Shown here piece by piece: positions 12,170 to 63,110 of a stretch of DNA of 64,000 bases (positions are counted from its first letter, which is position 1; every line of letters starts with the position of its first letter). This stretch comes from Methanofollis fontis (GTDB lineage Archaea; Halobacteriota; Methanomicrobia; Methanomicrobiales; Methanofollaceae): contig NZ_PGCL01000003.1 of NCBI RefSeq assembly GCF_004297185.1, positions 248,001-312,000 of the forward strand, given 5' to 3'. A model generated the notes under the pieces. The model had not been told where the DNA came from. It saw only the letters and a program-made list of their open reading frames with translations, and searched no databases. The position numbers were made by a program, and so were the translations under genes.

Positions 12170-12241
12170 TATATATAATAAAATCAAGAACCAAGCCCCT
12201 GGCTGTCCCAACCAGGAACAGCCTGTAATGTGGGGGGACAC
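12170..12241 (+). promoter_or_regulatory. box A and G-rich ribosome binding site of the first propeller gene
   Basis: A strong TATATAT box at 12170-12176 predicts transcription from about 12200, giving a leader of some 40 bases. The leader ends with GGGGGGAC at about 12233-12240 just before the ATG at 12242. An ATG at 12230 is also in frame but lies upstream of this ribosome binding site, so 12242 is the likely start. Confidence 0.55.
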
Positions 12242-13408
12242 ATGAACAGAATACACCTCTGTGCCGGAGTAGTGACAGCGATTTTTATATTATGCATCCC
12301 GGTCGGCGCCTGGGATATGAACGAGATGTGGTCAGAAGGGATCGGCGGCGAGATAAAATCGGTCTCCATCTCTCCAGAAGGATCGTATATTGCGGTCGGA
12401 ACAGCGAGTGTCGGGGGTCTGCACCTCTATTCCCGGGACGGAGAACATCTCTGGACCCATCCGACCGGATGCTCCGTCTTTGGTTCGGCGGTCTCTTCGG
12501 ATGGCGAATACATTGTCATGGGCTCCGAATATGTGCGGGTGTTCAACCTGGAGGGTGAGATCGAGTGGCAGTGGGATTCCGGCTATTTTGCCTACAGTGT
12601 TGCGATCACCCCTGATGGAGCATATATCGCCGTCGGGAGTGACGATAAGAGCGTCACCCTCCTCGAGTATGGCGAGGGCAAGATCTGGCGGTATGAACTC
12701 CCGGACGATCCGACCTGCGTGGACCTCTCCGCCGACGGGCAGTATGTGGTTGCAGGAACAGACGGACAGGTCTACCTCCTCGATGGTGACGGCGAGCTGG
12801 TGTGGGAGATCGATGTTGGAAAAGGGGTCCAGTCGGTTGCGATAGCACCGGACGGCACCTCCATTGCTGCCGGCACGCTCGATTACCGTTCTCACCTCAT
12901 ATCAAAGGAGGGAGAGATCCTGTGGAGGTATATGACCAACAACCGTGTGTTCGGGGTTGCACTATCAGAGAACGGGGATGTCGTCACCGGATCGCACGAC
13001 GATCATCTCTATATCATCAACGGTGACGGCGACCGGATCCTTGAAACAGAGACCTCCGGACATATCAATGATGTGGATGTTTCGTCCGATGGATCGGTTG
13101 TTGTAGCCGGCACCGGAAACGGGGACCAGCACCTCATCCTGTATGAGCGGGCCACACAGGAGATGACAGAACCGGAACCGACGGAACCGGAACCGACAGC
13201 GGTGATCGAGACCATTGAAAACATCGGAGAGAACGTCTCGGAGGAATTGACCGCTTCAACGATGCCGGCGGCAGCGGTAAAAGAGGAGTCCTATCTCTCA
13301 TTGAAGTTTACGGGGCTTACCGACACCGCATCGCCGCTCTATGCCCTTGCAGCGGGGATTGTTGTGATCGCATCGGCAGCATATCTCGGCCACCGGCGGA
13401 GGAGATGA
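12242..13408 (+). CDS. secreted, membrane-anchored beta-propeller (WD40/PQQ-like) protein
   Basis: A 388-residue surface protein. It has a signal peptide (about residues 1-22, ending at PVGAWD), then seven or so propeller blades of the form SVSISPEGSYIAVGT / VAITPDGAYIAVGS / DLSADGQYVVAG, a Pro-Thr-Glu spacer (TEPEPTEPEPT), and one C-terminal membrane helix (ALAAGIVVIASAAYL) followed by RRRR. This places the propeller outside the cell. A clear paralogue lies at 30547-31950. Such propellers are usually binding or scaffold modules; the ligand is unknown. Confidence 0.8.
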   Translation: MNRIHLCAGVVTAIFILCIPVGAWDMNEMWSEGIGGEIKSVSISPEGSYIAVGTASVGGLHLYSRDGEHLWTHPTGCSVFGSAVSSDGEYIVMGSEYVRVFNLEGEIEWQWDSGYFAYSVAITPDGAYIAVGSDDKSVTLLEYGEGKIWRYELPDDPTCVDLSADGQYVVAGTDGQVYLLDGDGELVWEIDVGKGVQSVAIAPDGTSIAAGTLDYRSHLISKEGEILWRYMTNNRVFGVALSENGDVVTGSHDDHLYIINGDGDRILETETSGHINDVDVSSDGSVVVAGTGNGDQHLILYERATQEMTEPEPTEPEPTAVIETIENIGENVSEELTASTMPAAAVKEESYLSLKFTGLTDTASPLYALAAGIVVIASAAYLGHRRRR

Positions 13409-29615: not shown

Positions 29616-30554
29616 GTGACCACCTCAAAGTATTTCTCAGGAGGGCCCCCCCGATCTACGGTGAAAGCAGAGAAACAGCCCTTTCACGAGGAGCATGCCA
29701 CCCGGATCCGGAGGTTCCAGGAGGTTTTTGCGGATTCCGGACGGTCTGCAGCTGCATGCATCGCACTGCGAGAGGTTATCTGCCATTTTTTCCGGCATCA
29801 GGGCCGGGAGATGGCATGGAGAGAGACGACCGACCCCTACCGGATCTTCGTCTCGGAAGTGATGCTCCAGCAGACACAGGTGGAACGGGTAAAATCGAAA
29901 TATCCCGGGTTTATCAGCCGTTTCCCCGACTTTGCATCGCTGGCCGCTGCGGAGACAGCCGATATCCTTGATGAATGGCAGGGCCTGGGCTACAATCGGA
30001 GGGCCCTCGCCCTCCGGGGTGCGGCGCAGGAGGTGATGGAGCGTTTTTCCGGACAACTCCCCGGGGAGGTCAGGGACCTCGAGAGTCTTCCCGGGATCGG
30101 GCATGCCACCGCCTCGTCGATCGCCGCCTTCGCCTTCAACAGACCCACGGTCTTCATTGAAACGAATATCAGGCGGGTGTTCATCCACTTTTTTTTCAGG
30201 GATGAGGACGGGATCAGCGATGCCGAAATCCTGCCGCTCGTGGAGATGACCGTCGACCGGAAGCACCCGCGGGAGTTCTACTGGGGGATCATGGACTATG
30301 GGACCATGCTGAAGAAACGCTACCCGAACCCGAACCGAAGGAGCGCCTCCTACTCCCGACAGTCACGGTTCGAGGGTTCGGACCGGCAGGTCCGGGGCAG
30401 AATACTCCGCATCCTCCTTGAAACGGGGGTGTCTGAACCCGGAGCCCTCTATGCCGGCGCCGGCGTCGATCCCGAAAAAGGGAAACAAATTCTCGAAAGA
30501 CTGAAAAAAGAGGGTTTTGTCAGGGAAGAGGGCGGAAACTACCGGATCACGTAG
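29616..30554 (+). CDS. MutY-like A/G mismatch DNA glycosylase without iron-sulfur cluster
   Basis: HhH-GPD glycosylase, up to 312 residues. It has the MutY core MAWRETTDPYRIFVSEVMLQQTQVERV (with the catalytic Glu), ILDEWQGLGYNRRALAL and the hairpin LPGIGHATASSIAAF. The catalytic-Asp segment reads FIETNIRRVF, with Glu in place of Asp. The four-Cys iron-sulfur loop after it is missing; instead MLKKRYPNPNRRSASYSRQSRFEGSDR appears in two parts. Cluster-free MutY homologues are known. A helix-turn-helix-like tail (ILRILLETGVSEPGAL) ends the protein. The start is GTG 29616 or GTG 29661. Confidence 0.82.
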   Translation: MTTSKYFSGGPPRSTVKAEKQPFHEEHATRIRRFQEVFADSGRSAAACIALREVICHFFRHQGREMAWRETTDPYRIFVSEVMLQQTQVERVKSKYPGFISRFPDFASLAAAETADILDEWQGLGYNRRALALRGAAQEVMERFSGQLPGEVRDLESLPGIGHATASSIAAFAFNRPTVFIETNIRRVFIHFFFRDEDGISDAEILPLVEMTVDRKHPREFYWGIMDYGTMLKKRYPNPNRRSASYSRQSRFEGSDRQVRGRILRILLETGVSEPGALYAGAGVDPEKGKQILERLKKEGFVREEGGNYRIT

Positions 30555-31950
30555 CGCCTGCCAGTCCCGGGAGACGGGGAAGGGCCGGAAGAGGACCGGC
30601 ACTGTTCTCCGCACGATACCACTCGGGCACAGCGATCACCCCATAGGCGGTCGGGCCAAACGGAAGGTGGCCTTCAAACACCATCCGCCCCTCCGGATCA
30701 TAGCCGATGAACCGGGTTTCGACGATCTCCGCATGAGCGGGGACCTGATGCACCCCTTCAGGCGTGGCCGCAACGATCGTTACATTATCCGCACCGCCAT
30801 GGTCCTCGACCCATGCCCCGTCCACGCTCATCCGCACGCTGGCCGGAGATGACGGATCGGGCGTTTCCAGCAGCACACTGATGACCGAGACGCCGTTGAA
30901 GATATGGGCGATCTCGGGCACCTCTCCGGTCGGTTCCAGCACGAACGCCTTCAGGAGATCAGAACTGCCCTCATTCCCCATGGCGACCGCCGGGTTCTCC
31001 GCTGTCCCATCATCGGACTCTTCGGCAACAGGCGCCCCGATATGCTCGAAGACCAGCACCCTCGGCGATCCGCCGCCGATGCCGGCGGCAACATACCTTC
31101 CGTCAGGGGTGATCGCCACGCTCTCAGCAATGCCGGAGGCAGGGAACTCCCCGGTCACCTCGCCCTGGGCGTTGAGCAGCACGACCTGTTTTCCATATGC
31201 TGCCGCAACATATTCGCCTTCAGCGGAGACATCGACACCCAGCACCCGGGATCCCGCAACATGCCTCCAGAGAAGGGTCCCGTTGCGATCGAAGAAATAC
31301 AACACCTTGTCATATGAACCAGCGGCCACATAGTCTCCTTCTGGCGATATGGACACACTGCAGACGGTGTTTCCGGTCTCATACGACCAGAGAAGGGTTC
31401 CCTGCCCGTTATAGAGGTGAACCTTCTCGTCCTTTGAACCGACCGCAAGCAGAGAACCGTCTGATGAGAGCGACAGACTGACGGCGTCGTCTTCAAGACT
31501 CCGGGTCCACCGGCGCTGACCGCCAGCTGTCATGAGACTGAGCGTGGAATCGTCATACCCACCGGCGATATACTCGCCATCGGCAGAGAGGGCCGTGCTG
31601 AACGCAAAATAATCTGATTCAAACTGCTGGAGCAGGTCGCCGTTCCGCCCGAATATACGGAGTTTATCTGAGGCCACCGCAATGCTCTGCCCGTCTCCTG
31701 AAACGGCAACCTGATAGACCGGACACCCTGTGGGATATTCCCAGAGGAGCGAACCATTCTCCGAGAGTATGGAGACGCCGCCCTTTCCTTGCGTACCGGC
31801 AGCAATGACCGTGGCGTCATCGTTGAACGAGGTTGTGACCACCCGTCCCCCGAGGCCGACATTCACCAGAGATCCGTTTCTGTCTTCAATCGCCGCCGCC
31901 GGGACCGTGATCAGGAGTGCGAACGCTAGAACTATCAGTATCTGTTTCAT
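30547..31950 (-). CDS. secreted beta-propeller (WD40/PQQ-like) protein, paralogue of the 12.2 kb gene
   Basis: A 467-residue exported protein: signal peptide (about 1-20, ending AAAIEDRN), then a propeller of about seven blades (VSISPEGDYVAAGSYD, VDVSAEGEYVAAAYG, VAITPDGRYVAAGIGG) to roughly residue 290. A different C-terminal domain with PEGVHQVPAHAEIVETRF and FEGHLPFGPTAYGVIAVPEW follows, ending without a membrane helix. Blades share phrases with the gene at 12242 (PTGCxV, YFAFS/YFAYS). The start ATG 31950 has GGGGGACGGTAC upstream. It overlaps the MutY-like 3' end by 8 bp. Function unknown. Confidence 0.78.
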   Translation of the reverse strand: MKQILIVLAFALLITVPAAAIEDRNGSLVNVGLGGRVVTTSFNDDATVIAAGTQGKGGVSILSENGSLLWEYPTGCPVYQVAVSGDGQSIAVASDKLRIFGRNGDLLQQFESDYFAFSTALSADGEYIAGGYDDSTLSLMTAGGQRRWTRSLEDDAVSLSLSSDGSLLAVGSKDEKVHLYNGQGTLLWSYETGNTVCSVSISPEGDYVAAGSYDKVLYFFDRNGTLLWRHVAGSRVLGVDVSAEGEYVAAAYGKQVVLLNAQGEVTGEFPASGIAESVAITPDGRYVAAGIGGGSPRVLVFEHIGAPVAEESDDGTAENPAVAMGNEGSSDLLKAFVLEPTGEVPEIAHIFNGVSVISVLLETPDPSSPASVRMSVDGAWVEDHGGADNVTIVAATPEGVHQVPAHAEIVETRFIGYDPEGRMVFEGHLPFGPTAYGVIAVPEWYRAENSAGPLPALPRLPGLAGAT

Positions 31951-32070
31951 GTACCGTCCCCCGCACATCCGGTGCACCGCACCTGATGAACATCTGCAAT
32001 CATCTCTGTTGGGCGAGGGCATTAACGCTTGTGATGGGGATAAAAAAAGGACATCTGGAGAGCGACACCT

Positions 32071-52343: not shown

Positions 52344-52991
52344 TCAGCTGATCTCCACCCGCTCACCGGTGACCATATAGTGGATCCGTTCGGCCATAGT
52401 GCAGCAGTGGTCGCCGCACCGTTCCAGGTAGCGGGCGACCATCACGTAGTCCATGCAGCGGTTGATGTTTCTCGGGTCCTCCATCATGTAGGTGACGCCC
52501 TCCCTGAAGGCCGAGTAGCGCATATCGTCGACACAGTCGTCCCTGGTCGAAAAATCGTCGAGGCGTGCGACATCCCCGCTCTCATAGGCGGCAATCACGT
52601 CATCGATCATTGAAAACACCATTTCGGCCATATGGGGCAGGTTGAGCATCCGCCCGAGATGCCCGGAGGCGAAGTCGGGCACGAGGATGGCGACGTCCTT
52701 TCCATAACGCCCGATCCGGTAGAAGCCCACGTTCATTTTGAGGGTGCAGACGATCGTCCGCAGGTCGTGCGCCATCGGCTGATAGAGGGCAATGAGGGTG
52801 AGCAGACGCTCGTCGAAGTGATCGGAGAGGTCGGAGAGTCTGCGCTTGCGTGCGTTGACGTCGGCGGCGAGATTGCTATCGGCGTCCTGGAGCGCCCTCA
52901 TGGCGTCCTTCAGCATATCTGCCGCAAATTTGCTGTAATCGGTGAATTCTCGCCGTAGTAGTTTGAGTTCTTCGTGGAATTTATCGCTCAT
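52344..52991 (-). CDS. phoU: phosphate transport regulator PhoU
   Basis: A 215-residue helical protein with two PhoU repeats (LRREFTDYSKFAADMLKDAM, later YMMEDPRNINRCMDYVMVARYLERCGDHCCTMAERI). PhoU usually damps the Pst transporter and phosphate response. The acidic/His metal cluster of PhoU is present. It is the last gene of the pst operon, 11 bp after pstB. The start is ATG 52991. Confidence 0.94.
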   Translation of the reverse strand: MSDKFHEELKLLRREFTDYSKFAADMLKDAMRALQDADSNLAADVNARKRRLSDLSDHFDERLLTLIALYQPMAHDLRTIVCTLKMNVGFYRIGRYGKDVAILVPDFASGHLGRMLNLPHMAEMVFSMIDDVIAAYESGDVARLDDFSTRDDCVDDMRYSAFREGVTYMMEDPRNINRCMDYVMVARYLERCGDHCCTMAERIHYMVTGERVEIS

Positions 52992-53002
52992 GCTTTCTGC
53001 AC

Positions 53003-53764
53003 CTATCCGAATCTTCCCGTCACGTAGTTCTCTGTCAGTTCTTCCCGCGGTGCCTCGAAGATCCCGGTGGTCTCCCCGAACTCGATGAGTTTTCCGAGGT
53101 ACATAAACCCGGTATAATCGCTCACCCGCGCCGCCTGCTGCATGTTATGGGTGACCATGATCACGGTATAGGTCTTCTTCAGTTCCTCGACCAGGTTCTC
53201 GATCTTTGCGGTTGCGATCGGGTCCAGGGCCGAGCAGGGTTCGTCCATCAGGATCACCTCGGGCCCGACGGCAAGGGTGCGGGCGATGCAGAGGCGCTGC
53301 TGCTGACCGCCCGAAAGACCGAGGGCCGAGGCATGGAGTCGGTCGCTGACCTCATCCCAGAGAGCGGCATCGCGGAGACTCTGCTCCACGATCCCGTCAA
53401 GGATTTTTTTATCCTTTATCCCATGTATTCTCGGTCCATATGCGATATTTTCATAGATGGACTTTGGAAAGGGATTCGGTTTCTGGAAGACCATGCCGAC
53501 CTTTTTCCTGAGGCTGACCACATCGGTCTGCGGGGTATTGATGTTCGCCCCTTCGAAGAGGATCTCGCCCTCGATACGAACATTGTCCACAAGGTCGTTC
53601 ATCCGGTTGAGGCAGCGGATGAGGGTGGATTTGCCGCACCCGGACGGACCGATGAGTGCGGTCACCCGGTTGCGTGCGAAGGAGATATCGACGTCCTGCA
53701 GGGCATGATGCTCGCCGTAATACAGGTTCAGGTTTCGTGTGCTGATGACTGCTGTTTCGGTCAT
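53003..53764 (-). CDS. pstB: phosphate ABC transporter ATPase PstB
   Basis: A 253-residue ATPase. Walker A is [12 protein letters not shown] (about 37-48), the PstB-typical [20 protein letters not shown] follows, then [23 protein letters not shown], signature [15 protein letters not shown] and Walker [14 protein letters not shown]. It is 7 bp after the fused permease gene. The NPFPKS phrase and ENIAYGPR distinguish PstB from other ABC ATPases. Confidence 0.97.
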
Positions 53765-53771
53765 TGGAAAA

Positions 53772-55718
53772 TCACCACCTCATATTTTTCTGATAGCGAC
53801 TCCTGACGCCGATGGCGATCGCATAGATGGCCACCACCAGGATCAGGAGGACGAGGGCCGTGCCGTACTGGTTCTGCTGCGCTCCCGGCACATTGGTCGA
53901 GAGGATGAACAGGTGATAGGGCAGGGCCATCACCGGTTCAAACACCGATGTCGGCAGGAAGCGTTTTGAGAAGACCACGGCGGTGAAGAGGATCGGAGCG
54001 GTCTCGCCCGCCGCCCTGCCGATGGAGAGGATCGTGCCGGTGAGGATGCCGGGCAGGGCGGGCGGGAGCACCACACGCCGGATCGTCTGCCATTTCGTCG
54101 CCCCGAGGGCCAGGCTTCCCTCACGGATCGATCCGGGCACGTTCTTGAGGGCCTCCTCTGTGGTCCTGATCACCGTCGGGAGGATCATCAGCCCCAGGGT
54201 GATCATGCCTGCCAGCAGCGAGACGCCGAAGTTCAGGAAGAGCACCAGGAAGGCGAACCCGAAGAGACCAAAGACGATCGAGGGCATGCCGTTCAGGAGG
54301 TCGATGCCGGTCCTGATGATCCCGGTGATCCGGCCCTCGCGGGTATATTCGGAGAGATAGATCGCAGCCCCGATGCCGATGGGAAGGGCGAAGGCGATCG
54401 CACCGGCGACCAGATAGAGCGTGCCGACGATCGCCGGGAAGATGCCGCCTGACCGCCCGAGGTCACGCGGGGGCTGGGTCAAAAATTCCCAGGAGATGGC
54501 CGGCAGACCGTTGACGATGATATAGGAGAGTATGATCACAAGGGCGCAGAGCACCAGCCCGATCGAGAGCACGATCAGGGCGAATGCAACCGACTGTGAA
54601 TGTTTTGCCGGGAGGCGGTCCCGGACGAAGTATATCCCGGCAAGCAGGACGATAACGGCAGCTGCGACCGCCGGCGGCAGGAGCAGGAAGACGAACAGCA
54701 CGGCGGCAATCACCAGGACTGCCCGGAACGCCAGGCGCACGTTCTCGGAATCCATGACCGATTTCTTCTTTGCCCGGCTCACCGCCTGCTGGCGAGACCT
54801 GATATGCTTCATGATTGCGACGGCGGCCAGATTGACGATGAGGGTGATCACGAGGAGCACGACGGCCACGCCGAAGAGTGCATGATAGTGCATGCTCCCG
54901 ACGGCCACCTCACCAATCTCGATACCCAGGGTGCCGGTGAGTGTACGCACGGGCGAGAGCACATTGGTGATCGGGTCGGGGATGATCGCCGCATTGCCGC
55001 AGACCATGATCACGGCCATCGTCTCGCCGATGGCGCGTCCCATCCCCAGGATGATCGAGGCGGTGATCCCGGAGAGCGCCGTCGGCACGAGCACACGGCT
55101 GATCGTCTGCCAGTGGGTGGCGCCGAGCGCCAGAGAGCCCTCCTTGAAGGCCGCCGGCACCATCGAAAGGGCATCCTCGGATACCGAGATGATCGTCGGC
55201 AGCGCCATGACGCCCAGAAGGATCGAACCTGCAAGCCAGCTCTCGCCCGATGGGGTATCAAAGGAGATGCGGAGCCAGTTGGTCAGGACGATCAGGCCAA
55301 AAAAACCATAGACCACAGAAGGAATGCCGGCCAGAAGTTCAATCGCCGGTTTAGCGATCAAACGCAACCGGTAGGGCGCAAGTTCTGCGATGAATAGTGC
55401 ACTCCCGATGCCGAGCGGCACCGCCACCACCATTGCCCCGATGGTGACCAGTACCGTGCCGACGATCAGGGGATACACACCATATGCGGGTTCGGCACCG
55501 GTCGGATTCCAGGTGCTCCCGCTGATGAAGTTCCATATCCCGATCGACTCAAATGCCGGCACCGCATCCCGCAGAAGGAAGAAGATGATGAAAAACACAG
55601 CAAGCACGGCAAATGAAGCTGTAAAAAACCATATCGAACGGATAATGGTCTCCTTCATCCCCCCGTTCCTGAAGGTCGGCACAAGGGAGCGGGATATGTT
55701 CTGATAATCGTCTGTCAT
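53772..55718 (-). CDS. phosphate ABC transporter permease, PstC-PstA fusion
   Basis: A 648-residue chain holding two permeases that are separate in most genomes. The PstC half is about 1-305 ([23 protein letters not shown]-like [23 protein letters not shown]); the PstA half is about 335-648 ([43 protein letters not shown]). A basic linker with [13 protein letters not shown] joins them. The linker and an added set of helices ([21 protein letters not shown]) keep both halves in the right orientation. The fusion forces 1:1 assembly. The start is ATG 55718. Confidence 0.94.
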
Positions 55719-55806
55719 ATACCGTTCACCAGCACAAGAAAAATAATGGGTGTCATTGGACCAGAACCCGTCCGGCCCCTGAAATGTTCTGCCATAGACA
55801 GGAGAC

Positions 55807-56661
55807 CTATTTTACCGGCACAAAGCCCTCATCAGCGACGATCGCCTGTCCCCCGGCGCTCATGATGGAGTCCAGGTAGTCCTGTGCAAGCCCGGTGGGC
55901 TGGCCCTTCGTGAACATGTTCAGGGAGCGGGCGATCGGGTATTCGCCGGCGACAACGGTCTCGACGGAGGGGGTGACCTGCGTGCCGTCGACATCGATCT
56001 TCACGGCCTTGATGGTGTCGTCGATGTAGCCGAGACCGACATAGCCGATGGCGCCGGGGGTCTGGGCAATGGTCTGCTGGATTGCGCCGTTCGAGTTCTT
56101 CTCGAGCTGGTTGGGCGTGAAGTCTTCCCTGTCCATGACACTCTCGTGGAAGAATTCGCGGGTGCCCGAGGCGCTGTCACGCCCGACGACAACGATTGCC
56201 TGGTCGGATCCGCCGACCGCATTCCAGCGGGTGATATCGCCGAGGTAGATGGACTTCACCTGGTCCTCGGTGAGGACATCGACGGAGTTGGAGGGGTGGA
56301 CGATGATTGCAATACCGTCACGGGCGACGATGTGCTGAACAAGGTCGGGGTACTTCTCCTTCTCAGAGTCCTTCAGGTCGCGGGAGGCCATACCGATATC
56401 GGCGGTGCCTTCACCGACGGCCTGGACACCGACGCTCGAACCGCCGCCGCTCACCTGGATGTCGGCGTAGGTGTTGGCGTCCATGAATGCCTCGGCGGCC
56501 ATCTGGGCGATCGGGAGGACGGTGGTCGAACCGGTGACCGAGATACTCTGAGTCGTCGGTGTCGTGTCACCGCCGTTTCCAACGCAACCGGTAAAGAAAA
56601 TGGCTACAATTACCAGTGCAAGTATTGGCAATGCAAGGAATCCGGGGTTTCTACTCTCCAC
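55807..56661 (-). CDS. pstS: phosphate-binding protein PstS
   Basis: A 284-residue lipoprotein (lipobox FFTGC, about Cys26) that captures phosphate outside the cell. Core motifs: ISVTGSTTVLPIAQMAAEAF, VSGGGSSVGVQAVGEG, GMASRDLKDSE, and the phosphate loop RDSASGTREFF. Translation starts at GTG 56661; GGTGA is placed six bases before it. An ATG ten bases further up would lead to a stop, so GTG is certain to be the start of this frame. It opens the pst operon at a palindromic control region. Confidence 0.95.
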   Translation of the reverse strand: MESRNPGFLALPILALVIVAIFFTGCVGNGGDTTPTTQSISVTGSTTVLPIAQMAAEAFMDANTYADIQVSGGGSSVGVQAVGEGTADIGMASRDLKDSEKEKYPDLVQHIVARDGIAIIVHPSNSVDVLTEDQVKSIYLGDITRWNAVGGSDQAIVVVGRDSASGTREFFHESVMDREDFTPNQLEKNSNGAIQQTIAQTPGAIGYVGLGYIDDTIKAVKIDVDGTQVTPSVETVVAGEYPIARSLNMFTKGQPTGLAQDYLDSIMSAGGQAIVADEGFVPVK

Positions 56662-56693
56662 GGTTTTTCACCATGTAAAAATCGGGCGGAGAC

Positions 56694-56718
56694 AGTATAA
56701 TTCAAACCGAATTATACT
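56694..56718. promoter_or_regulatory. perfect inverted repeat in the pst divergent promoter
   Basis: AGTATAATTC (56694-56703) and its exact reverse complement GAATTATACT (56709-56718) flank a 5-base spacer. Each arm contains a TATA-like element, and its position about 35-55 bases upstream of the pstS start overlaps the pstS box A region. Binding of a dimeric protein here would block pstS transcription. The AbrB-PhoU protein encoded divergently is the natural candidate (inference). Confidence 0.6.
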
Positions 56719-56726
56719 ATGTTTCG

Positions 56727-56783
56727 GAATATATTCGATAGAAAGTATTGATTCGTATATAGTTTTTGAATAGGTATATATCT
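56727..56783 (+). promoter_or_regulatory. second palindrome and box A of the AbrB-PhoU gene
   Basis: A perfect palindrome GAATATATTC lies at 56727-56736, sharing the GAAT/ATTC core with the arms of the larger repeat. A TATATAT box at 56775-56781 stands about 29 bases before ATG 56807, so this gene has a leader of at most a few bases. Repeated GAAT/ATTC half-sites across the 145-bp gap suggest cooperative binding. Confidence 0.45.
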
Positions 56784-56806
56784 CGGCACCACACCATTGA
56801 GTAGTA

Positions 56807-57823
56807 ATGGAAATCCGCAAGGTTCAGATCACGGGCGGTTCATCATATATTGTTTCTCTCCCCAAGGAATGGATAAAATCCTCGAAGATTGCGAAGAACG
56901 ATCCGGTCGGACTGATCGTCCAGCAGGACGGGACACTCCTGGTCACCCCCAAAATCGATGTAGAAGCCGTACAACGCGAAAAGACGTTTCAGGTGAATGC
57001 AACCACCGACCAGATATTCATTCTGCGATGCCTGATCAGCGCATACATCGCGGGCTATACGGTGATCACCCTGACGGCACAGGGGCGGTTGCCCCCAAAA
57101 ATCCGGATGCGTGTGCGCGATTTCACCCAGATGGCAATTGGACAGGAGGTCGTGGAGGAGACCGAGACCTCGATCCGGATCAAGGACCTGCTCAACCCCT
57201 CTGAGATGCCCTTCCAGAACACCATACGCAGGATGGCGGTACTGGCGAGAGGGATGCACCAGGACAGCGTGGAGGCATTGAAGTCCGGCAATACGGCGCT
57301 TGCCGAGGATGTGATCGCGCGCGACAATGATGTCGACCGCCTCCAGTGGTTGATTGCGCGGCAGGCGAACCTGGTGCTGAACGACGCCAACCTCTCACGG
57401 CGCATGAACGTCAGTCCGCAGATGGCACTGACATATTTTTTGATTGCACGGATCATCGAGCGGATCGGCGATCACGGCACCCGCATCGCACGCAGTTCCA
57501 TCGGACTTACGATGACAGACCAGAAATGTGATATCATCACAATGATCGACGATGCAAGCACCACTGCATCCTCCATATTTGACCGGGCCATCGAATCGCT
57601 TTTCTCACAGGATATCAAGACGGCAAACGCAACCATCCAGCATGTCGAAGACCTCGAAGAACAGGCGCGGGCGATCAACACCCATGCACTCGACTATGAT
57701 GCCGCCACGGCGACGGCGCTGGTCTCGATATCCGACAGCATACGCAGGATAGGGGAATATTCGGGAGATATCTGCGAGAGTATCATCAATCATCTCATTC
57801 ACGAAGAGACACCGATACACTAA
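56807..57823 (+). CDS. AbrB/SpoVT-PhoU fusion regulator of phosphate uptake
   Basis: A 338-residue protein with an N-terminal AbrB/MazE-type swapped-hairpin DNA-binding domain (about 1-50; VQITGGSSYIVSLPKEWIKSS) and two PhoU domains (about 115-335; RRMAVLARGMHQDSVEAL, YFLIARIIERIGDHGTRIAR, SISDSIRRIGEYSGDI). The composition is common in archaea and replaces the bacterial PhoB response regulator. Its position beside the pst operon and the palindromic gap points to direct control of pst transcription. ATG 56807 fits a box A 29 bases away. Confidence 0.92.
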   Translation: MEIRKVQITGGSSYIVSLPKEWIKSSKIAKNDPVGLIVQQDGTLLVTPKIDVEAVQREKTFQVNATTDQIFILRCLISAYIAGYTVITLTAQGRLPPKIRMRVRDFTQMAIGQEVVEETETSIRIKDLLNPSEMPFQNTIRRMAVLARGMHQDSVEALKSGNTALAEDVIARDNDVDRLQWLIARQANLVLNDANLSRRMNVSPQMALTYFLIARIIERIGDHGTRIARSSIGLTMTDQKCDIITMIDDASTTASSIFDRAIESLFSQDIKTANATIQHVEDLEEQARAINTHALDYDAATATALVSISDSIRRIGEYSGDICESIINHLIHEETPIH

Positions 57824-57855: not shown

Positions 57856-58251
57856 ATGGATGAGACGACGATTGTAGAAGACCTCACAGACAGCACATGG
57901 GAGACACGGATCGAGAGGGGTGAACTCCCCTCGATTGTGATGTTTCACAGCCCGACATGCCCGTTCTGCAAACAGATTGAACCCTACTTCCGCGATTTTT
58001 CCGGAGAATATGCGGGACGCATTCTTTTTGCCAGACTGGACGTATCCACCAATCCCTGGACAGTCGAACGCTATGCCGTCCGTCAGACACCGACGTTCAA
58101 ATTTTTCTGTTCAGGAAAACCGGTTCAGGAACTTGTGGGAGCGGCATTTCCGGCACTCCTCAAGAAAAACATCGATGAGTTCCTCAAACATGGCGAGGGA
58201 TGCGCACGGAGCAGCAGTGAAATTGACTATGAGATTACGGGGTATGCATAA
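57856..58251 (+). CDS. thioredoxin-family protein (CPFC)
   Basis: A 131-residue thioredoxin-fold protein with the active site CPFC (residues 34-37, in FHSPTCPFCKQIEPYF), the strand FARLDVSTNPW and the cis-Pro loop RQTPTFKFF. The C-terminus (about 105-131) is an added helical tail with one Cys (GEGCARSSS). The N-terminus has about 22 residues before the fold. It is 32 bp after the AbrB-PhoU gene and may be co-transcribed. Partner unknown. Confidence 0.83.
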   Translation: MDETTIVEDLTDSTWETRIERGELPSIVMFHSPTCPFCKQIEPYFRDFSGEYAGRILFARLDVSTNPWTVERYAVRQTPTFKFFCSGKPVQELVGAAFPALLKKNIDEFLKHGEGCARSSSEIDYEITGYA

Positions 58252-58371: not shown

Positions 58372-58379
58372 TTTATATT
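58372..58379 (+). promoter_or_regulatory. box A of the predicted small RNA
   Basis: TTTATATT at 58372-58379, preceded by A-rich CCCAAAT as a possible BRE, is centred about 26 bases before the first base of the predicted RNA stem at 58401. No reading frame with a ribosome binding site starts in the following 300 bases, so the transcript is likely non-coding. Confidence 0.55.
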
Positions 58380-58400
58380 TCAGTATATGCAACTGATAGT

Positions 58401-58480
58401 AAGGAGGAAAAAGGAGTCTCAGCGACACGTCCCCCCCGTAAACATGTGTCTTTTTTCTGAGACTGACTTGCCTCCTTTTT
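58401..58480 (+). ncRNA. predicted small structured RNA with C-rich loop
   Basis: About 80 nt form a long interrupted hairpin. AAGGAGG (58401-58407) pairs with CCTCCTT (58471-58477); AGTCTCAG (58415-58422) with CTGAGACT (58457-58464); GACAC (58424-58428) with GTGTC (58446-58450). The 17-base apical loop contains seven consecutive C. A T-run (58476-58481) ends it. The lower strand also carries GGAGG. The loop GTCCCCCC is complementary to GGGGGGAC-like ribosome binding sites, including those of rmlA and both propeller genes. Alternative: a long terminator-like structure at the end of the thioredoxin mRNA. Confidence 0.5.
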
Positions 58481-58676
58481 TGAACTTCCGCTTTCAAGGA
58501 TCGCTATTATTTTAGTCACACTCATCCCTGGTCAATTGATTTCAGGGTGAGGGATTCAGAGCACCCGGTGCATCCGGGTATAAAAAAACCATCCAGGGAC
58601 GATATCTATAGAGTCTGTCTATTTTCAAAAAAATTCGGTTGAAACAGACTTTCAAAACCGGCCACCATTAGATAAC
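58481..58676. other. AT-rich intergenic segment with short inverted repeats
   Basis: Second part of the gap. A hairpin ACCCGG/CCGGGT lies at 58563-58579 and a wider repeat AGTCTGT/ACAGACT at 58612-58618 and 58644-58650. Neither is followed by T in the direction of transcription, so they are not simple terminators. No coding frame is visible. Confidence 0.4.
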
Positions 58677-58677
58677 A

Positions 58678-58716
58678 TTATATATAAGATGGATCTGTAT
58701 TGGCAGTGGGGGACGC
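58678..58716 (+). promoter_or_regulatory. box A and ribosome binding site of rmlA
   Basis: TTATATATA at 58678-58686 predicts transcription at about 58708, so the leader would be only about nine bases and consists of GGGGGACGC, which acts as ribosome binding site directly before ATG 58717. Confidence 0.5.
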
Positions 58717-59793
58717 ATGAAAGGCCTGATTCTTGCAGGCGGCCATGGTGTTAGACTCCGGCCGCTGACCTATTCGCAGCAGAAACAACTGATTCCGATA
58801 GCAAACAAGCCGATCCTGTTCTACTGCATCCAGGATCTCATTGATGCCGGAATTCATTCCATCGGCATCGTTGTCGGCCCGAACAAGGAGCAGATCCAGC
58901 ATGAGGTGAATAACCATGGCTTTGAAGCGGATATCGAGTTTATCGAACAGGATTCACCGAGGGGACTTGCACACGCGGTGAAGATCGCACAACCGTTCAT
59001 CGGCGATGACCGTTTTATCATGTATCTCGGAGACAACATTCTCCGGGGAGGGATACAGGGATTTGTCGATGATTTCAGGACATCCCCGGCAGAGGCCAGT
59101 CTGCTGCTCACAAAGCTCCACAACCCTGAACATTATGGGGTTGCTCTGGTGGATGAACAGAAGAAGGTGATCCTCAAGCTTCTCGAGAAGCCGAAAAACC
59201 CCCCTTCAAATCTCTGTATTGTCGGGATTTATGGGTTGTCTCCGAGAATATTCGAGGCATCTGACAATATCGCCCCCTCATGGCGGGGGGAACTGGAGAT
59301 CACCGATGCCCTCCACTGGCTGATCCTGCAGGGACACAGGGTCACCTATGATCTTGTGGAGGGGTGGTGGAAGGATACCGGAAAACCGGAAGACCTTATC
59401 GATGCAAACCGCCTTGTCCTCGATACCCTTGGATCGATGAACGGAAACGGATCCTCTCCCGGCACCGTGGAGAACAGCACCATCTCAGGCCGATGCAAGA
59501 TCGGGCGAAACACCGTGATTAAAGACAACTCCGTCATTAAAGGGCCGGTGATTATCGGAGACGACTGTATCATCTCAAACGCATACCTTGGCCCCTATAC
59601 CAGCATCGGCAACGGCTCAATTCTCTCGAATACCGAGATCGAGGACTCAATCGTGATGGAGGGATCGGTAATCAGGAATGCCGACCGGATCGTTGAGAGC
59701 CTGATCGGCAAGAATGTGACCATCGAGAGGGATGGAAGGCTTCCTGGTGGACGACGGTTCGTTATCGGCGACAATTCAAATGTGATAATCTGA
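58717..59793 (+). CDS. rmlA: glucose-1-phosphate thymidylyltransferase, long form
   Basis: Makes dTDP-glucose (or another NDP-sugar) for surface glycans. The 358 residues start with LILAGGHGVRLRPLTYSQQKQLIPI, the nucleotidyltransferase signature, with YLGDNILRGG and WWKDTGKPEDL farther on. The C-terminal 110 residues are a left-handed beta-helix (ISGRCKIGRNTVIKDNSVIKG, then IEDSIVMEG), typical for the archaeal long form. rmlB follows 11 bp downstream, so dTDP-4-keto-6-deoxyglucose is the likely product of the pair. Confidence 0.93.
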   Translation: MKGLILAGGHGVRLRPLTYSQQKQLIPIANKPILFYCIQDLIDAGIHSIGIVVGPNKEQIQHEVNNHGFEADIEFIEQDSPRGLAHAVKIAQPFIGDDRFIMYLGDNILRGGIQGFVDDFRTSPAEASLLLTKLHNPEHYGVALVDEQKKVILKLLEKPKNPPSNLCIVGIYGLSPRIFEASDNIAPSWRGELEITDALHWLILQGHRVTYDLVEGWWKDTGKPEDLIDANRLVLDTLGSMNGNGSSPGTVENSTISGRCKIGRNTVIKDNSVIKGPVIIGDDCIISNAYLGPYTSIGNGSILSNTEIEDSIVMEGSVIRNADRIVESLIGKNVTIERDGRLPGGRRFVIGDNSNVII

Positions 59794-63038: not shown

Positions 63039-63110
63039 GCCCCAGTGGCTTAGAGGCATAGCGGCTGACTTGTAATCAGCAGGTCGCGAGTTCAAATCTC
63101 GCCTGGGGCT
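63039..63110 (+). tRNA. tRNA-Thr (anticodon TGT)
   Basis: A 72-nt cloverleaf. The acceptor stem is GCCCCAG/CTGGGGC with discriminator T, the anticodon stem GCTGA/TCAGC encloses the loop CTTGTAA (anticodon TGT, reading ACA), and the T arm is CGCGAGTTCAAATCTCGC-like with the GTTCAAATC loop. No intron and no encoded CCA. Discriminator U fits archaeal tRNA-Thr. The AT-rich segment begins directly after it. Confidence 0.95.

What the first reader, a model, noticed from the sequence alone, without database searches (positions are those of the whole stretch)
58372..58480. Probable small RNA with a C7 loop matching G-rich ribosome binding sites
A box A is centred 26 bases before an 80-nt sequence that folds into three nested stems, with no coding frame. 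The loop GTCCCCCC is complementary to GGGGGGAC at the ribosome binding site of the 12242 propeller gene, to GGGGGAC before its paralogue at 31950, and to GGGGGAC before rmlA 230 bp downstream. C-rich loops of archaeal and bacterial small RNAs often mask ribosome binding sites (established). Here it could co-regulate surface proteins and sugar synthesis (inference).
Basis: partly seen in the sequence, partly recalled or inferred. Interest (0 to 1): 0.65.

Follow-up and report, generated by a model that had tools for sequence, protein, structure and literature searches.

The report
Conserved archaeal small RNA, C7 loop
A short RNA gene found only in the methane-making archaeal genus Methanofollis folds into a hairpin whose invariant loop of seven C's matches the translation start of a surface-type protein and of sugar-building enzymes in every close relative that has them, so it probably switches their translation.

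Summary
Window 58401-58480 (+) is a single-copy RNA gene present in 11 of 12 Methanofollis genomes, absent from the other Methanomicrobiales and Halobacteriota genomes searched, and not in Rfam. The outer helix covaries: 96% of cells paired, 6 pairs changed on both sides, no slid control close. The C7 apical loop, the inner stem and a U6 internal loop are invariant. A TATA box lies about 26 nt upstream, and conservation stops at a U-run, so it is an independent transcription unit. It is not a leader of rmlA: four genomes keep the RNA without rmlA. The target idea is partly supported. GGGGGAC counts in the window equal chance, and the site before the 31950 paralogue is not conserved. But the RBS of the 12242 propeller gene is GGGGGAC in 9/9 orthologues (proteins only 42-46% identical) and that of rmlA in 7/7. 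A third family that I found, mannose-1-phosphate guanylyltransferase, has it in 4/4. Neighbouring genes share a 7-mer RBS in only 37 of 189 between-clade comparisons. Best reading: a trans-acting sRNA masking G-rich RBSs of envelope and nucleotide-sugar genes. It works like sX13/6C and M. mazei sRNA154/sRNA41 but is a new family. Transcription, direction and trigger are unshown.

The parts
58372..58379 (+). Box A (TATA) promoter element TTTATATT
   Evidence: Sequence; a TATA-like box at the same distance from the RNA in all 11 genomes, while surrounding intergenic DNA is about 30-45% identical
58401..58480 (+). small RNA gene; 5' end inferred from the box A distance, 3' end from the U-run
   Evidence: Fold z -3.6; 11 homologues; covariation
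58401..58407 (+). outer stem, 5' arm (pairs with 58471-58477)
58415..58422 (+). middle stem, 5' arm (pairs with 58457-58464); compensatory changes among relatives
58424..58430 (+). inner stem GACACGU, 5' arm (pairs with 58444-58450); invariant in 11 genomes
58431..58437 (+). invariant C7 of the apical loop, proposed seed; unpaired probability 0.98-0.99 in all 11 homologues
58451..58456 (+). invariant U6 one-sided internal loop; possible Lsm-binding site (inference)
58457..58464 (+). middle stem, 3' arm
58471..58481 (+). outer stem 3' arm CCUCC and terminal U-run (terminator-like)
   Evidence: TTTT to T7 at this place in most homologues, TTT in three
12232..12239 (+). proposed target site GGGGGGAC at the RBS of the WD40/PQQ-type propeller gene 12242-13408
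   Evidence: GGGGGAC kept in 9/9 orthologues; duplex energy in the best 1-3% of gene starts
58708..58714 (+). proposed target site GGGGGAC at the RBS of rmlA 58717-59793
   Evidence: GGGGGAC kept in 7/7 orthologues
31956..31962 (-). GGGGGAC before the propeller paralogue 30547-31950; weak target candidate, not conserved
   Evidence: Orthologues carry GGGGGGAAT, GGGGGCGGT, GCGGGGTGG or GGAGGCGGT instead
58677..58688 (+). separate TATA-like box of rmlA (ATTATATATAAG), suggesting that rmlA has its own promoter
   Evidence: Sequence; equivalents in the other rmlA-bearing genomes

Best explanation
A stand-alone gene makes an ~80-nt non-coding RNA. It is one long hairpin: a covarying outer helix, an invariant U6 internal loop, an invariant 7-bp inner stem, and a 12-13-nt apical loop that presents seven unpaired C's. 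Shown here: the gene, the structure, its genus-wide conservation and its independence from rmlA. Inferred: the loop base-pairs in trans with GGGGGAC-type ribosome binding sites and blocks 30S binding. The best targets are an exported propeller protein and the nucleotide-sugar pyrophosphorylases rmlA and (in some species) mannose-1-phosphate guanylyltransferase, so it tunes cell-envelope and glycan synthesis. The U6 loop may recruit the archaeal Lsm protein.
For: Homologues in 11/12 Methanofollis genomes, core invariant, box A kept. Covariation: 96.4% of cells paired, 6 pairs with double changes (0 or 1 when partners are slid), covariation score 0.224 against 0.137 shuffled, 0/500. C7 unpaired at 0.98-0.99 in every homologue. 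GGGGGAC at the RBS in 9/9 propeller orthologues (42-46% protein identity to the window's) and 7/7 rmlA orthologues. A 7-mer in the RBS region is shared in 24/24 and 14/14 between-clade pairs for these two genes, against 37/189 for eight neighbouring genes. GGGGGAC is not the usual RBS: 1 of about 29 GGGGG occurrences upstream of 306 sampled genes. Loop:propeller duplexes lie in the best 1-3% of gene starts, -19 to -25 kcal/mol for the loop against -8 to -10 for the anti-SD at the target sites tested. Mannose-1-phosphate guanylyltransferase: GGGGGAC in 4/4 close orthologues. GGGGGGAC-N1-7-ATG: 176 sites vs 51 for the reversed control in ten RNA-bearing genomes, 423 vs 234 in 51 genomes without it.
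Against: No expression data. G-rich RBSs are themselves complementary to the anti-SD (with one G-U), so their conservation could serve translation alone. rmlA pairing is only in the best 3-13% of gene starts, and other genes score as well. The paralogue site at 31950 is not conserved. One genome without the RNA (G123) has even more GGGGGGAC-ATG sites, 33 vs 3. The RNA is kept in four genomes that lack rmlA, and in two (G004, G011) where no close propeller orthologue was found, so no single target explains its conservation. The loop never varies, so co-variation between loop and target cannot be tested.
Confidence: 0.6

Rival explanations
1. The RNA is real, but the C7 loop and U6 internal loop are protein-binding sites (Lsm or another RNA-binding protein). 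It acts as a scaffold, sponge or RNP component, and the G-rich RBS matches are incidental.
For: The whole inner stem (7 bp), the loop and U6 are invariant in sequence, more than a seed alone requires. Targets differ between clades while the RNA does not.
Against: RBS conservation at rmlA and the propeller exceeds that of neighbouring genes, and GGGGGAC is not the general RBS.
Confidence: 0.17
2. A trans-acting sRNA with the same pairing but a positive effect: it protects or opens G-rich leaders, as M. mazei sRNA154 does for nifH.
For: Both modes are reported for a single archaeal sRNA (PMC5867862).
Against: The pairing sites cover the RBS 2-6 nt before the start codon, where pairing is expected to block initiation.
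Confidence: 0.1
3. G-rich RBSs are conserved only because they serve the ribosome; the RNA acts on other, unidentified targets.
For: Similar enrichment occurs in at least one genome without the RNA (G123); other genes also share RBS cores between clades.
Against: GGGGGAC pairs more weakly with the anti-SD than a strong site such as that of PstB (-8 to -10 vs -15 kcal/mol), yet it is kept across proteins of 42-46% identity.
Confidence: 0.1
4. A cis-acting leader (riboswitch or attenuator) of rmlA, or the transcription terminator of the upstream thioredoxin-like gene.
For: It lies between the two genes on the same strand in the window and ends in a U-run.
Against: Four genomes keep the RNA without rmlA; rmlA has its own TATA-like box; a TATA box precedes the RNA; an invariant loop is not needed for a terminator.
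Confidence: 0.02
5. A small protein gene starting at the AUG inside the hairpin (MCLFS...).
For: The AUG and the first five codons are identical in 11 genomes.
Against: No Shine-Dalgarno sequence before it, no shared stop, the AUG is buried in the invariant stem, and the changes that occur keep base pairs rather than amino acids.
Confidence: 0.01

Closest known systems
sX13 of Xanthomonas (PMC3771888)
   Same: C-rich apical loops on stable stems; represses mRNAs with G-rich motifs near the start codon; reported Hfq-independent
   Different: Three hairpins and 4C/5C loops, bacterial; here one long hairpin with a single C7 loop, archaeal, no sequence relation tested or seen
6C RNA / B11 of mycobacteria (PMC10470900)
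   Same: Loops with a run of C's pairing with G-runs in mRNA leaders (B11 and the eccB4 leader)
   Different: Two C-rich loops; bacterial; no Rfam family matches this RNA even at relaxed thresholds
Methanosarcina mazei sRNA154 and sRNA41 (PMC5867862)
   Same: Intergenic methanogen sRNAs; sRNA154 loop 2 masks the glnA2 RBS and sRNA41 masks RBSs
   Different: Tied to nitrogen; sRNA154 has two loops; no homologue of the present RNA in the Halobacteriota genomes sampled
Haloferax volcanii sRNA132 (PMC6560208)
   Same: Intergenic archaeal sRNA with kept neighbours within its genus and a regulon that includes envelope genes
   Different: Targets phosphate transporters via the 3' UTR; the present RNA lies near a pst/phoU cluster but its loop has no G-run partner at the pst starts examined

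Membership tests
trans-acting (base-pairing) intergenic sRNA | own promoter, and free-standing between genes | tested here: met
   TATA box at fixed distance in 11 genomes; the flanking gene rmlA is absent in four
trans-acting (base-pairing) intergenic sRNA | conserved structure with accessible seed | tested here: met
   covariation and C7 unpaired at 0.98-0.99
trans-acting (base-pairing) intergenic sRNA | conserved complementarity to target mRNAs encoded elsewhere | tested here: met
   propeller gene 46 kb away, 9/9 orthologues; not met for the 31950 paralogue
trans-acting (base-pairing) intergenic sRNA | expressed as a discrete transcript and changes target expression | not testable with these tools
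   no RNA data held
6C RNA and other Rfam families | match to an Rfam covariance model | tested here: not met
   no match at gathering threshold; relaxed searches gave only hits far below the gathering scores
sX13-type C-rich-loop regulators | several hairpins, each with a 4C/5C loop | tested here: not met
   a single long hairpin with one C7 loop
rmlA riboswitch or leader | always upstream of and co-transcribed with rmlA | tested here: not met
   G002, G005, G008, G010 have the RNA and no rmlA
C/D or H/ACA guide RNA | match to known C/D or H/ACA families | tested here: inconclusive
   No Rfam match near gathering score; by eye the conserved CUGA lies inside a helix and no C box is placed as in C/D RNAs; no dedicated guide-RNA search was run

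The most novel reading that the evidence does not exclude
A genus-specific archaeal master sRNA that uses one homopolymeric C7 loop to control a whole class of G-run ribosome binding sites, coupling nucleotide-sugar synthesis (rmlA, mannose-1-phosphate guanylyltransferase, UDP-sugar dehydrogenase) with exported propeller, fasciclin and beta-helix proteins. It would be an archaeal counterpart of sX13/6C that arose independently.
Probability: 0.35. Interest if true: 0.7.

Novelty: new member of a known kind. Interest (0 to 1): 0.52.

Why it matters
Few archaeal sRNAs have worked-out targets, and my limited paper search found no Methanofollis sRNA study. This one comes with a defined structure, an invariant seed and testable, conserved targets. 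If confirmed it would show that C-rich loops reading G-rich ribosome binding sites also occur in archaea, probably by independent origin, and that envelope and glycan genes of a methanogen are under RNA control. The alignment and model could seed a new Rfam family.

Tried and rejected
Rfam at gathering and relaxed thresholds: no family. Wider distribution: R1 in 232 order and 393 phylum genomes gave only Methanofollis plus one E=0.088 match (L040) lacking the C-rich loop. Degenerate pattern scans: only Methanofollis in genome contigs, nothing in IMG/VR. Diverged copies beside the thioredoxin gene of 20 other Methanomicrobiales: none; two C-run candidates inspected and dismissed. Cis-regulation of rmlA: rejected by synteny. 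Small-peptide reading: rejected. Window-wide enrichment of GGGGGAC: none. The 31950 paralogue as a conserved target: rejected.

Full report
Setting. The window is G000:C3:248001-312000. Its close relatives G001-G011 form one genus. Two of them correspond to public Methanofollis records: the pattern scan returned contigs of 8519 and 20807 bases titled Methanofollis, the sizes of G010:C93 and G007:C249. The candidate lies on the + strand between a thioredoxin-like gene (57856-58251) and rmlA (58717-59793), beside a pst/phoU cluster.

Observation. The sequence AAGGAGGAAAAAGGAGUCUCAGCGACACGUCCCCCCCGUAAACAUGUGUCUUUUUUCUGAGACUGACUUGCCUCCUUUUU folds as three nested stems at -27.1 kcal/mol, z -3.6. 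The apical loop has seven C's. A TATA-like box (58372-58379) is centred 25.5 nt before 58401. The only other match in the own genome is a chance 14-mer, so it is single copy.

Conservation. A DNA search of the genus finds it in 11 of 12 genomes; the exception, G009, is 88% complete. The stretch CUCAG...GACACGUCCCCCCCGUA...AUGUGUCUUUUUUCUG is invariant apart from one inserted G in two genomes and one C/U position just before the inner stem, and the outer stems vary. In an alignment of 480 bp around the core, identity to the window falls from 0.9-1.0 in the core to about 0.3-0.5 outside the RNA, with a modest rise at the promoter box. On the 11-sequence alignment, 96.4% of cells are paired. Six pairs change on both sides, against 0 or 1 when partners are slid. 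The covariation score is 0.224 against 0.137 for shuffles, 0/500 as high. The covariation is all in the outer and middle helix; the inner stem never varies, so it rests on thermodynamics alone. Individual homologues fold at z -3.1 to -4.6. C7 is unpaired at probability 0.98-0.99 and U6 at 0.85-1.0 in all 11.

Distribution. A covariance model (R1) finds the 11 Methanofollis copies and nothing credible elsewhere among 232 Methanomicrobiales and 393 Halobacteriota genomes; these scans used strict filters and can miss weak relatives. A filters-off search of the thioredoxin neighbourhood in 20 other genomes found none. No Rfam family matches.

Not a cis element and not a peptide. rmlA follows the RNA by about 240-300 bp in seven genomes but is absent from G002, G005, G008 and G010, which keep the RNA with an identical C7 loop and a glycosyltransferase on the opposite strand. 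rmlA has its own TATA-like box about 35-45 nt before its start. The AUG inside the hairpin gives MCLFS in all species, but the stop is not shared and other frames are broken by indels.

Targets. GGGGGAC is no more frequent in the window than chance. Cross-genome evidence is better. All seven rmlA orthologues have GGGGGAC two or three nt before ATG. All nine orthologues of the 12242 propeller gene, at only 42-46% protein identity to the window's, have GGGGGAC at the RBS. In G002, G005, G008 and G010 it reads GGGGGACGUG, a 10-nt complement of CACGUCCCCC in the RNA, although five of those ten RNA bases lie in the inner stem. The paralogue at 31950 has GGGGGAC only in the window's genome. Between clades, a shared 7-mer in the RBS region is found in 24/24 propeller and 14/14 rmlA comparisons but in 37/189 for eight neighbouring genes. 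That background is small and the comparisons are not independent. In 306 genes sampled from G001, GGGGG occurs in 20 upstream regions and is followed by AC once, so the motif is not the standard RBS. The loop pairs with the propeller leaders in the best 1-3% of gene starts, and with rmlA leaders in the best 3-13%.

Further candidates came from genome pattern searches and hit-centred stretches. Mannose-1-phosphate guanylyltransferase has GGGGGAC in 4/4 close orthologues, but not in the more distant copies of clade IV. A small protein of unknown family, present in the same 11 genomes as the RNA, has a G-rich RBS in all of them and the exact motif GGGGGAC in six. Others are a PD40 propeller and a fasciclin lipoprotein (G001 and G006), a UDP-sugar dehydrogenase (G004) and a beta-helix/GDSL exported protein (G000). 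Several are envelope or sugar-nucleotide genes, but the lists also include a TusA-like protein, CO-dehydrogenase-like and other metabolic genes, and I did not test the functional bias statistically. GGGGGGAC-N1-7-ATG exceeds its reversed control more in the ten RNA-bearing genomes searched (176 vs 51) than in 51 others (423 vs 234). These genomes are related, and G123 without the RNA shows 33 vs 3.

Mechanism. Most likely (0.6) the loop masks G-rich RBSs in trans. Shown: gene, structure, conservation, independence, and conserved complementarity at two of the three named targets. Inferred: transcription, pairing in vivo, repression rather than activation, and Lsm binding at U6. The same principle is documented for sX13 (PMC3771888) and B11 (PMC10470900), and RBS masking by methanogen sRNAs is described for sRNA154 and sRNA41 (PMC5867862). 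By structure and distribution this RNA is none of these, so I call it a new member of a known kind. My search for papers on Methanofollis sRNAs found none, within an open-access library only.

Noticed in passing
L236:1285-1503 (-), L189, L219, L312-L322: A small protein of about 50-75 aa (motif GLSLRAPRFHRR...HSMEVI) with no Pfam match occurs in the same 11 Methanofollis genomes as the RNA, has a G-rich RBS (up to G7), and in several genomes follows the end of a gene whose C-terminus reads like an ABC permease (PAWKA-RLDPIEALRYE).
   Followed up: partly
G123: A Methanomicrobiales genome without this RNA has 33 GGGGGGAC-N1-7-ATG sites against 3 in the control, the strongest excess seen; it may have its own C-rich regulator or a G-rich RBS habit.
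   Followed up: no
L326, L323-L325: Mannose-1-phosphate guanylyltransferase genes of G000, G001, G003 and G006 share GGGGGAC at the RBS, while the more distant copies in G002, G005, G008 and G010 have no G-run at the start.
   Followed up: partly
window 52344-57823: The RNA gene lies beside a pst/phoU phosphate-uptake cluster in most species; whether its expression follows phosphate is unknown.
   Followed up: no
window 63039-63110: tRNA-Thr (TGT), the only Rfam gathering-level match in the window.
   Followed up: no
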